In this document: piece by piece, positions 36,884 to 60,539 of the stretch
Layout: every line of letters starts with the position of its first letter
How positions within the stretch are numbered: position 1 is the stretch's first letter
NCBI RefSeq assembly: GCF_042100115.1
Contig: NC_091272.1
Coordinates: 3,782,001-3,846,000, forward strand
Direction of reading: 5' to 3'
Length of the DNA: 64,000 bases
Source of the DNA: Alternaria dauci
Lineage: Eukaryota; Ascomycota; Dothideomycetes; Pleosporales; Pleosporaceae
Notes under the pieces: model-generated
The model's database searches: none
What the model was told of the DNA's origin: nothing
The model's input: only the letters and a program-made list of their open reading frames with translations
Program-made: the position numbers and the translations under genes

Positions 36884-38308
36884 CTAATCATCAGTGTCAT
36901 CACTCGGCATGTACGTGTCTCCGACAGAGGAGGCGTAGGTTGCCATCGACTTCGGAGGCACTGGAGGCATGCGGCGGACAGACCGAGGTAGTGGTGGGTC
37001 TATCTTACTCTTCGGCCAAAGCGAAATGCTGATTTCATCTCTGGACCCCAGATCCCGGCGCAGCCTACTCAAATCTGGTAGGGAGATGCCGTATTCGCTT
37101 TCGACGTCTTCTTCACTATCATCTTCTTGTGCTTTCTCGTCATACTCTTGTTCTTCTTCGTCATTTTCGTCACTTCTGTCTTCTTCACTCTCGCTCCCGC
37201 TATACTCAAATCCAGGGCCGAAACCGTACACATCTCCAGAATTTTCACTGCTGTTGTCGTCGTCTTCCGCAGTTACGGTCCGTCCACGATCGTAACCTGG
37301 CTCTTCCTCGTGCCGATAATGGCGGTCACGATCCCGGATATCAGAGCACTACATGAAGGTAAATACGTCAGTCGAGGCAGCGTATAGCACGCAAGGCGAA
37401 TGAAAACCTACCGAGTCGAAGAGTTTGATTGCGTCCTCCTTCCAATTGGAACCAGGGTTCTTGATTGCTTCATTGAGCTCTATTTCATCCATGTCTGCAG
37501 AACACTGTGTATTTCCTTGCCAGTATGAATATTCATAATAGATGCGCACGTGACAGCCTTTTCCACCAAACCGTGTATCTTGAAGAGGGTATTTAATACA
37601 GCCGGGTAGCAAATCGAACCACATTTCCGTAATCTCGCGAGCTACCTGTAAAGATGGGGGAGCGAAGTCAGTGTACATCTCACATGTATTCCGTACAGTG
37701 AAGACCTACGTCGGGTCCCATATACGAAGGTTTGATAAAATGGGGTCCTCGGTGATCAGAACATTCGTCGAGGGTACCAATAACACAACCATGACTCCAA
37801 CAGTCGTCGGCGATCATTGGCTCCATTCTGGGCCACGCATCTTACATTGTACGTTGGTCCCAAATGTGACGATACACCATATTTCGAATCTCGCGTGGTA
37901 GGCCTCCAGGTTGGAGTAGTTTTTTGGCGAAGCCAAAATTCCAGCATCGAGAGTAGAGTTCGGAAATGGATCACGCCCCCCTCGAGAAAATCAGACTGAG
38001 TTGAGATTCATGCGATGCATGCAACAATGTACATACGTCCTTCTTACTTCACGTTGCTCAGCGCAAGCTTTTCGTATATTTTTCTTCATTTCCTCGAATC
38101 GCTTGAGCATATTCTCGAGCCTGTAGGAGTCGTATCAGCAACGATCTATCATTTGATGAGCCTCCTTTGCCTCATACGTGTGCTTGTAGCTTGATACTAT
38201 CAGCATTCAACTTTCGAATAACATGGACGCCACCTACTCCAAGAACTGCGTATACGCTGCGTGAACATTCTCAGGTTTGGAACGCTTCGGGACATCCTGG
38301 AATGACAT
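36884..38308 (-). CDS. Hypothetical protein with LPxEIR motif (F-box/2EXR-like), multi-exon
   Basis: The first exon starts at 38308 (MSFQDVPKRSKPENVHAAYT) with a GTAGGT donor at 38237. A later coiled-coil-like exon reads RLENMLKRFEEMKKNIRKAC. A further exon carries LPREIRNMVYRHIWDQRTM, the motif that starts F-box-like and 2EXR domains in fungal proteins. The next exons read HGCVIGTLDECSDHRGPHF, then (37645 to about 37412) VAREITEMWFDLLPGCIKYP and HVRIYYEYSYWQGNTQCS, then an acidic tail (DENDEEEQEYDEKAQEDD) ending in YMPSDDTDD. The intron at 37646-37709 is 64 nt and nearly repeats an intron of the MFS gene at 59077-60539 (see findings). The middle exon borders are uncertain: at least one join needs an unusual acceptor. 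No function is claimed. Confidence 0.6.
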
Positions 38309-59076: not shown

Positions 59077-60539
59077 TCATATCCACCCGATCCTCCTTGC
59101 CGCATAACCCCAGCCACTCAGGAATGCGGTCACGCCTGTGAACGCAATCAGTGCCCCATATCCGCTACCGTAGGCAAATCCCGCACTCCAGTCTCCAGCA
59201 TGTAGCAGAGCTTCTGAGAGCGGGCCACTGCACAAGTTGCCGACGCCTTTTCCAGCCGAGAGGCACGCCCATACAAAGCCAGAATCTGCGCCTCTGCGCT
59301 TCTTCTGGGTTTCTGCGACCATGGCGCTCCAAGCACTCGATTGACAGCCAGCGAAAGCGCCGTAAACTACGCAGAAGATGTATAATGGCGCCAGTGAAGT
59401 GGAGAATCCCCAGAGGAGAAAGATGCCGACTGTTGAGCCCAGGGCTGAGACCATGATGCAGGTGGTAACATGGTACTTGTCGGTCGCAATTCCCATGCAC
59501 AGACAGCCGACAAATGCAGCAGCATTGACGAGAATAATTGTAACAGTGCTCTCAATGCTACCTGCACCGATAGACCGAGCGAAAGTGGGTAGATAGATTG
59601 CTGGTAGAAAGAATCCAAGGCTCTGGATGATGTTGCCGGACTGGAGAATCAGGTAGTTGGAACAGGTCCAGAACGACAGGTCAAAGCCCCTGTTTTGCGA
59701 TGTCTGAGATAACGGAAGGCGAGGTTTGAAGAAGAAGACTATGGGGAAGTTGAGGGCCACGAAGCTGAGTGCGCATACTCGTAGAGTTGTCCGGAACCCG
59801 TAAGTGTGTAGAAGCCACTCGAGGATGAGAGGAAGAATGGCGCCACTCAATCCCAAGCCGGCCATGGCAACCCCATAGGCGAATCCCCTCCTGCGTACCC
59901 ACCACTCTTCGATGTTGAAGAGAATTGGCGTCCACGCGAGACCACCGCCTAGTGCGTACAAGATGCCTTGAGTGATTATGAGGTGCGTTATGCTCGTTGA
60001 AAGAGATCCAAGGCCCAAGGCAAGGCAGACGACTACCAGACCAACTGGTGTTGCCCAGACGCGAAACTTGGGAAAGTACTTTAGTACGACGAACCATAGC
60101 GCAATATCCATGTACATGATACCCTAGTAGGTGTTAGTCTTGGTCTTTGCAAAAATCACTAGGACATACCATTGCACAAGTACCCACAACGGCAACGTTG
60201 CTTTGGCCAGAGAACTCTTCACTAGTAGCATAGTATTCTTGGAAGACGCCGTAAGAGGAAGGAAAGCCCCAGATCATGGCCTCGAGCTGCAGAGGTGAAG
60301 AGACGAAGTCAGTGCATGTCTCACATGCATTTCGTACGGGTACGGCTTACCATGAAGCAGGAAAACAGGCAGAGCCATGCATCTCTGCCACCGTCGGTGG
60401 GCGGAAGAGAGAACCCATTGTCGCTTAATGGTTGGGAATGGTCGTTTTCTTGTAGTAGTTCAATGTCTGTGGTTGCAGCCGAGGAGGGCTGCTGGGGGTA
60501 AGTGGTCAAGTCGACCTGGGTACTCTGAGTCGAAGCCAT
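59077..60539 (-). CDS. MFS transporter, monocarboxylate-transporter-like
   Basis: Three exons on the minus strand: 60539-60351, 60286-60170 and 60123-59077, all joined in phase 0; 450 residues. A polar N-terminus of about 50 residues is followed by twelve likely membrane helices. The start of helix 1 is the MCT motif DGGRDAWLCLFSCFMLEAMIWGFPSSYGVF split by the intron at 60287-60350 (the D-G-G-x-x-W pattern of fungal MCH-type transporters). The motif WWVRRRGFAYGVAMAGLGLS between helices 4 and 5 fits. The central loop is short. Known relatives in yeast (Mch family) do not clearly move monocarboxylates, so the substrate is open. The 64-nt first intron is nearly the same as one in the gene at 36884-38308 (see findings). 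Divergent from ORC4. Confidence 0.92.

What the first reader, a model, noticed from the sequence alone, without database searches (positions are those of the whole stretch)
37646..37709. Near-identical 64-nt introns in two unrelated genes: likely introner-like elements
The minus-strand intron at 37646-37709 (gene with LPxEIR motif) and the one at 60287-60350 (MFS transporter) are both 64 nt and phase 0. They align end to end without gaps, about 45 of 64 identical by my count, and 30 of 36 in the core (offset 12-47). The shared blocks include CATGTGAGA and CACTGACTTCG, the latter holding the branch site. The host proteins are not related and the flanking exons do not match, so gene duplication does not explain it. 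Introner-like elements that multiply as spliceosomal introns were described in dothideomycete fungi, which fits the inferred lineage. Two copies in 64 kb suggest many more in the genome.
Basis: partly seen in the sequence, partly recalled or inferred. Interest (0 to 1): 0.85.

Follow-up and report, generated by a model that had tools for sequence, protein, structure and literature searches.

The report
Self-multiplying introns in Alternaria dauci
Two near-identical introns in unrelated genes are members of a family of short introns that has copied itself into genes across the genome of a carrot-infecting fungus; introns of this kind are already known, but subfamilies here favour different bases at their insertion sites, which bears on the open question of how new introns arise.

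Summary
The genome is Alternaria dauci. A core pattern with up to 3 mismatches has 163 genome-wide matches against 0 for its reversed control; the matches listed by all pattern searches make 181 distinct copies. Of 90 copies read with flanks, 81 join reading frames of at least 25 codons on both sides after splicing. Paralogues of two hosts run uninterrupted through the intron site, which supports gain. These are introner-like elements. Introners were already reported in Alternaria alternata, one example 64 bp long (PMC9860276), so this is a new member of a known kind, perhaps the same family (sequence not compared). Not found in the papers I could see: subfamilies (A 64, B 61, C 65 nt) with different insertion contexts. 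G precedes the intron in 32/37 A but 4/31 B (p=7e-10), repeated on other copies (15/16 against 6/25); C has G after it in 14/22, with little held-out support. No stable hairpin in the two copies. Likely mechanism, inferred: RNA-linked insertion (about 0.55).

The parts
37646..37709 (-). Intron A: 64-nt introner-like element, divergent member of subfamily A
   Evidence: subfamily A by a margin of only 2; leave-out profile E 1.4e-11
60287..60350 (-). Intron B: 64-nt introner-like element, subfamily A, in an MFS transporter gene
   Evidence: leave-out profile E 1.4e-19; MFS_1 in the following long frame 59077-60117
37663..37695 (-). Conserved 33-nt core of intron A with CACTGACTTCG (branch-site motif, by resemblance) at 37663-37673
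60304..60336 (-). Conserved 33-nt core of intron B with CACTGACTTCG (branch-site motif, by resemblance) at 60304-60314
60351..60539 (-). 5' exon of the MFS host gene of intron B (63 codons from ATG, ends TTC ATG, so G at -1)
60170..60286 (-). Exon of the MFS host gene after intron B, up to a probable next intron that starts GTATGT at 60169
   Evidence: read
37710..37841 (-). Open exon before intron A (44 codons, DAWPRM...GPD); TAA at 37844-37842 separates it from the LPREIR stretch

Best explanation
The two introns are copies of one introner-like element (ILE) family in Alternaria dauci: short spliceosomal introns that carry their own 5' splice site, branch site and 3' splice site and have multiplied by inserting exactly into the coding strand of genes, each insertion making a new intron. 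The family has related subfamilies that share the core TACGAA[A/C]TGCATGTGAGACATA[C/T]ACTGACTTCGTA and differ at the ends: A (64 nt), B (61 nt), C (65 nt). SHOWN: copy number, similarity that stops at the splice sites, position between reading frames, absence from paralogues of two hosts, different flanking bases of the subfamilies. INFERRED, about 0.55 likely: the excised intron RNA is reinserted by reverse splicing or a similar RNA-linked step into single-stranded coding-strand DNA, or into a transcript that is then copied back. INFERRED: the ends of the element help to choose the site (A after G, B often after T, C before G). INFERRED: after insertion the copies drift apart. The confidence of 0.9 is for the identity as introner-like elements, not for the mechanism.
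For: Pattern counts 56 and 163 versus 0 for reversed controls. 181 distinct copies in the union of listed matches; a capture-recapture figure of about 280. 81 of 90 copies have at least 25 open codons on both sides after splicing, versus 55% of 608 sense and 38% of 699 antisense fake introns in the same loci; reading through would shift the frame or meet a stop in 88 of 90. 351 pairs of 64-nt A copies have median identity 77% inside and 27% in 60 flanking bases. A Pfam domain runs across the junction in 7 of 10 host fragments and in 2 of 7 further ones above Pfam's cut-off; the hexokinase host aligns without a break at the junction to solved hexokinase 2nzt. Gain: all 13 permease paralogues found run uninterrupted through the element's site, as do the 7 MFS matches that cover intron B's site. 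No flank duplication beyond chance in 73 of 90 copies tested. Contexts: -1 G in A 32/37, B 4/31, C 9/22; +1 G in C 14/22, A 12/37, B 6/31. Copies outside the 90: -1 G 15/16 in A against 6/25 in B, p=1.4e-5; -1 T 14/25 in B. Same kind in A. alternata (PMC9860276).
Against: Splicing is not shown by RNA reads. The reverse-splicing step is not tested; different flanking preferences of A and B, which share the start GTAAGT, are not what one generic spliceosomal preference would give, and the consensus ends of B and C are partly self-complementary (p 0.006 and 0.001 against shuffles), which a DNA transposon would also show. Nine of 90 copies failed the 25-codon test; they may be in short or terminal exons, or outside coding sequence. 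The fake-intron control is itself often open (55% sense). Paralogue tests cover two hosts and paralogues of only 26-58% identity, and absence from paralogues could in principle be loss. The context of C is weakly supported outside the 90: +1 G 2 of 3, and -1 G 7 of 11, not significantly different from A (p=0.13).
Confidence: 0.9

Rival explanations
1. The elements are non-autonomous DNA transposons with short terminal inverted repeats that end in splice sites (as proposed for most introners outside ascomycetes), moved by a transposase supplied in trans.
For: Ends of consensus B and C are partly self-complementary (local scores 10 and 11, shuffle p 0.006 and 0.001). Subfamily-specific flanking bases resemble target preferences of integrases. 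A one-base G duplication cannot be told from a G preference in A and C.
Against: No duplication of flanks beyond chance in permutation tests on 73 of 90 copies; in B G is rare on both sides (-1 4/31, +1 6/31). The palindrome is not significant in A (p 0.185) and single copies show no excess stability on average (mean z -0.4 to +0.4; 12 of 90 below -1). 81 of 90 copies lie between sense reading frames, whereas neutral intergenic copies would be expected.
Confidence: 0.25
2. Insertion happens by repair of double-strand breaks in transcribed DNA that captures folded intron RNA or its cDNA, as suggested for fungal stwintrons (PMC8469720, passages), not by the spliceosome itself.
For: No target duplication found, partly symmetrical consensus ends in B and C, clusters of copies: 13 adjacent pairs under 2.5 kb against 2.9 expected, 12 of 13 in the same orientation.
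Against: A strong base preference right at the junction is not expected for capture at random breaks.
Confidence: 0.15
3. The similarity is inherited: the introns are ancestral introns of duplicated genes, or a conserved functional RNA inside introns.
For: None found beyond the similarity itself; several hosts are MFS transporters.
Against: Hosts belong to many protein families; flanks of A copies are at chance identity, at most 42%; copies lie in all phases; pair counts over 90 copies show no apparent excess of compensated changes (judged from the counts, no formal test); paralogues lack the intron.
Confidence: 0.02

Closest known systems
Introners of Alternaria alternata, family 1 (Gozashti et al. 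2022, PMC9860276)
   Same: Same genus; the printed example spans 1639687-1639750, i.e. 64 bp, the length of subfamily A; described as having no features of known DNA transposition and inserting directly; introns carrying both splice sites.
   Different: Its sequence is not in the text I saw (parts 1-3 of 7 and passages), so identity of the family is not tested. Subfamily-specific junction bases are not mentioned there.
Introner-like elements of Capnodiales (van der Burgt et al. 2012, not held, known here only as cited; Collemare et al. 2015, PMC4457414, parts 1-3 of 4 read)
   Same: Many near-identical short introns in unrelated genes, several families per species, two ILEs in one gene; according to PMC8469720 (passages) stable structure or inverted repeats, seamless insertion and a preference for AG/GY sites and codon phases were reported.
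   Different: Different order of Dothideomycetes; here A uses a G before the intron, C a G after it, and B neither.
Sister stwintrons and cropped introns of Hypoxylaceae/Xylariaceae (PMC8469720 and PMC12403724, passages)
   Same: Proliferating fungal introns, seamless insertion, functional on the coding strand only, symmetrical ends, no TSD, paralogues without the intron.
   Different: Many are nested twin introns; no base bias in bordering exons (both papers) and no phase bias (PMC8469720) were found there, whereas both are seen here per subfamily.
Transposon-type introners of algae and other protists (as described in PMC9860276)
   Same: Families of similar introns that create new introns.
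   Different: Some of those have TSDs and/or TIRs and some take a splice site from the target; here no TSD is found and both splice sites are carried by the element.

Membership tests
Fungal introner-like elements | Many similar copies in unrelated genes of one genome | tested here: met
   163 matches against 0 control; 181 distinct copies listed; flanks of A copies at chance identity
Fungal introner-like elements | Similarity covers the whole intron and stops at the splice sites | tested here: met
Fungal introner-like elements | Copies are introns: canonical splice sites and frame-restoring removal | tested here: met
   GT start in 89 and GC in 1 of 90, AG end in 90, but boundaries were chosen to have these; 81 of 90 joined frames; domain continuity in 7 of 10 and 2 of 7 fragments
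Fungal introner-like elements | Removed from mRNA in the cell | not testable with these tools
   no RNA reads available
Fungal introner-like elements | Recent gain: absent from orthologues or paralogues | tested here: met
   paralogues of two hosts only; orthologues of other Alternaria could not be searched
Fungal introner-like elements | No target-site duplication | tested here: met
   permutation tests on 73 of 90 copies with the first boundaries; a one-base G duplication in A or C cannot be excluded
Fungal introner-like elements | Stable secondary structure or inverted repeats in young copies | tested here: inconclusive
   consensus B z -2.2 and inverted-repeat p 0.006, C z -1.4 and p 0.001, A z -0.9 and p 0.185; single copies near zero; no apparent covariation
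A. alternata introner family 1 | Sequence identity to that family | not tested
   no A. alternata sequence available here; only genus and length (64) agree
DNA-transposon introners | Target-site duplication | tested here: not met
   (73 of 90 copies)
DNA-transposon introners | Terminal inverted repeats | tested here: inconclusive
   partial, and only in B and C consensus

The most novel reading that the evidence does not exclude
The ends of the element, not a general spliceosomal preference, choose the insertion point: subfamilies with one shared core and the same GTAAG start insert in different contexts (A after G, mostly AG; B often after T; C before G), which would mean that fungal introners carry their own target specificity and that the AG/GY preference reported earlier for pooled elements may be a mixture of family-specific half-sites.
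Probability: 0.35. Interest if true: 0.7.

Novelty: new member of a known kind. Interest (0 to 1): 0.45.

Why it matters
How new spliceosomal introns arise is a long-standing question, and ascomycete introners are described as the outlier that lacks transposon marks (PMC9860276). A genome in 10 contigs with well over a hundred copies in related subfamilies gives a natural experiment on insertion: if the flanking preferences are set by the element ends, generic reversal of splicing is not enough, and candidate mechanisms can be told apart by sequence in related species.

Tried and rejected
1. Stable hairpin in the two window copies: rejected. Stems suggested by RNAalifold (outer stem) and by eye (inner stem) were tallied on 90 copies: no excess of compensated pairs is apparent (judged from the counts; the pair-counting tool with shuffles was not run), and the central pair of the inner stem is mismatched in 59%. 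Structure is at most a property of the consensus.

Replaced by the protein match to Alternaria dauci ACET3X_001200 on a contig of 7,052,283 bases, the length of the window's contig.

3. Target-site duplication and base pairing between the two exon ends: tested, not supported. One search used the first boundaries and left out 17 of 90 copies that fitted no length class.

4. RIP as the main source of divergence: C>T plus G>A are 157 of 506 differences, not dominant.

5. Ordinary introns as a baseline: 122 candidates predicted by rule, -1 G in 39 of 122 (A differs, p=3e-9; B p=0.04). The set is impure (among the 12 printed are element L014, a piece of element L020 and a probable decayed element in L016), so it is only a rough control.

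6. Chromosome differences in copy density are not claimed: of the 163 matches only 100 are listed, and those with 3 mismatches only from contig C1.

7. Boundaries of degenerate copies are uncertain; the first automatic choice was wrong for some (for example L021, L079, L087) and was redone with consensus alignment. The -1/+1 counts use the redone set; the head and tail patterns do not depend on it. The +1 pyrimidine excess of A in tail hits (28 of 35) is not matched in the 90-copy set (19 of 37) and is not claimed. Held-out results against a clean picture: +1 G in C 2 of 3; -1 G in C 7 of 11, not different from A (p=0.13). 'Held out' means not among the 90; one of the 16 A heads (L014) and one of the 23 A tails (L028) had been printed earlier.

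Full report
What was checked. The two introns sit at window 37646-37709 and 60287-60350, both on the minus strand. They are 64 nt each and identical at 45 of 64 positions, 30 of 36 at offsets 12-47. The finding's figures are exact. The shared 24-place core pattern has no third match in the window with up to 3 mismatches, and subfamily profiles find no third copy there above the level of the reversed window. RNA folding of the two copies gives nothing beyond shuffles.

How many copies. A 33-place pattern with up to 3 mismatches has 56 matches in the 34.9-Mb genome and none for the reversed pattern. A 23-place pattern has 163 against none; 100 are listed. Patterns for the heads of A, B and C and the tails of A, B and C, with six flanking bases, gave 28, 33, 15, 35, 20 and 9 matches, controls all zero. 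The union of what these calls list is 181 distinct copies on all 10 contigs, 86 on the plus and 95 on the minus strand. A capture-recapture figure (78 matches with up to 2 mismatches; 61 heads), 17 shared, is about 280; decayed copies escape both samples.

Are they introns. With boundaries set by consensus alignment and open frame, 89 start GT and one (in L067) GC, and all end AG by construction. After splicing, 81 of 90 have at least 25 open codons on both sides; fake GT-AG introns of similar length in the same loci reach this in 55% of 608 sense and 38% of 699 antisense trials, medians 68 against 26.5 and 20 codons. In that call's boundaries 2 of 90 could be read through. Phases are mixed, 33/29/28. 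Of the 20 host fragments with the longest frames, 15 were sent to Pfam with two window fragments: a domain above the cut-off runs across the junction in 7 of 10 (dynamin, phosphoketolase, hexokinase, MFS, alpha/beta hydrolase, amino-acid permease, cytosine/purine permease) and in 2 of 7 (MFS; the two window fragments have no match). The spliced hexokinase aligns without a break at the junction to 2nzt. One beta-galactosidase gene carries two elements of different subfamilies separated by a 10-nt exon; removing both gives a 450-aa frame, removing the first alone, neither, or all as one intron gives 111, 79 or 53 codons (the second alone was not tried), and the GH35 domain runs across the site.

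Are they gained. For the permease host (L083), 13 paralogous genes were found and all 13 run uninterrupted through the site at residue 110; one breaks about six residues further on (C9) and one about 30 residues before it (C8:255704/255993). For the MFS host of intron B, the 7 paralogue matches that cover the site at residue 63 run through it; 3 further pieces do not cover it. The two nearest paralogues break 5 to 10 residues downstream, with 47 and 70 nt between the pieces, which recalls the near-coincident gains described in PMC4457414. Orthologues in other Alternaria could not be searched here.

What genome. An ORC4 protein of the window matches Alternaria dauci ACET3X_001200 at 100% (97% of the query) on a contig of 7,052,283 bases, the length of the window's contig; a named A. 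alternata protein follows at 90%.

Anatomy. Consensus of the copies of modal length: A (27 copies) GTAAGTTGTGACTGTACGAAATGCATGTGAGACATACACTGACTTCGTATCTTCACCTCTGCAG, B (14) GTAAGTGTCCCTGTACGAACTGCATGTGAGACATATACTGACTTCGTACACCCACATTTAG, C (12) GTAAGAAATGTCCCTGTACGAACTGCATGTGAGACATACACTGACTTCGTACACGCACCTTTTAG. Assignment of the 90: A 37, B 31, C 22, some by small margins. Intron B of the window is a clear A; intron A of the window is a divergent A (margin 2), with C, not G, before it. Identity to the consensus runs from 65% to about 89% for most of the 90, a range limited by the search pattern. The closest pair of copies is 97% identical with 18% flank identity; median identity among 64-nt A copies is 77%.

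Insertion context. In A the base before the intron is G in 32 of 37, in B in 4 of 31 (p=7e-10), in C in 9 of 22; the base after the intron is G in 14 of 22 C, 12 of 37 A (p=0.03) and 6 of 31 B (p=0.002). A is common at -2 in A (21/37) and C at -2 in B (18/31); further out only weak deviations appear (for example -5 in B p=0.006, +11 in C p=0.01, uncorrected). Copies outside the 90, found by head patterns, repeat the A-B contrast: 15 of 16 against 6 of 25 (p=1.4e-5), with T before B in 14 of 25. They do not repeat an A-C contrast at -1 (C 7 of 11, p=0.13), and the C tail sample is only 3, 2 with G. Phase distributions differ: A 20/6/6, B 8/14/5, C 4/7/11 among the 81 (p=0.001). A and B have the same first six consensus bases, so selection on the 5' splice site alone does not explain why only A has the G. 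I read this as a difference in insertion preference. I did not find it in print in the parts I saw: papers on proliferating fungal introns report no base bias (PMC12403724, PMC8469720, passages), and the latter says that van der Burgt et al. 2012 saw a preference for AG/GY sites; that 2012 paper is not held, so subfamily contrasts may be in it.

Structure and duplication. Tests for flank duplication show no excess in the 73 copies tested. The consensus ends of B and C are partly self-complementary (p 0.006 and 0.001), A not (0.185); single copies show no excess stability on average (12 of 90 have z below -1, 8 of them in B) and no apparent covariation. Copies cluster: 13 adjacent pairs within 2.5 kb against 2.9 expected, at most 8 in 1000 simulations, 12 of 13 in the same orientation.

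Mechanism. Insertion precise at the splice sites, sense orientation between reading frames, lack of detectable duplication and a complete set of splicing signals fit RNA-linked insertion, as proposed for fungal introners. The junction preferences and the partly symmetrical ends are what a generic reversal of splicing does not explain; a DNA transposon or break-repair route remains possible. I put RNA-linked reinsertion at about 0.55.

What is known. Searches for introner papers led to the A. alternata report: PMC9860276 names an A. alternata family 1 introner at 1639687-1639750, 64 bp, without features of known DNA transposition (parts 1-3 of 7; passages). No listed title in those searches reports introners of A. 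dauci; the supplementary tables of PMC9860276 were not seen. The finding is therefore real and correctly interpreted, but of a known kind and perhaps a known family; its remaining interest is the subfamily contrast.

Noticed in passing
L032 (G000:C7:2724898-2725385, minus): The one ITS match returned by a search with a recalled barcode is a heavily mutated ribosomal DNA copy (52 C>T and 48 G>A of 130 substitutions), as repeat-induced point mutation would leave; the recalled query may be partly wrong.
   Followed up: partly
window 37842-37844, minus strand: An in-frame TAA lies between the LPREIR stretch and the exon that precedes intron A; the gene may be broken or carry an unrecognised intron.
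   Followed up: partly
L029 1487-1624 (C1:1846406-1846543): A beta-galactosidase gene has two elements of different subfamilies separated by a 10-nt micro-exon; a third copy lies about 1.9 kb downstream (same gene not tested).
   Followed up: yes
G000:C10:677046-677092 and C1:2157488-2157557: The two nearest paralogues of the MFS host are uninterrupted at intron B's site but break 5 to 10 residues downstream, a possible near-coincident intron.
   Followed up: no
L016, segment GTGCGTATCTCC...GAACCTAG: A predicted ordinary intron looks like a decayed element, suggesting that more ordinary introns may be old copies.
   Followed up: no
L073 (C2:3969691) and L067 (C2:2014755): Two copies could use a GC 5' splice site; in L073 the final boundary choice preferred a GT, and in L067 the GC start is doubtful.
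   Followed up: no
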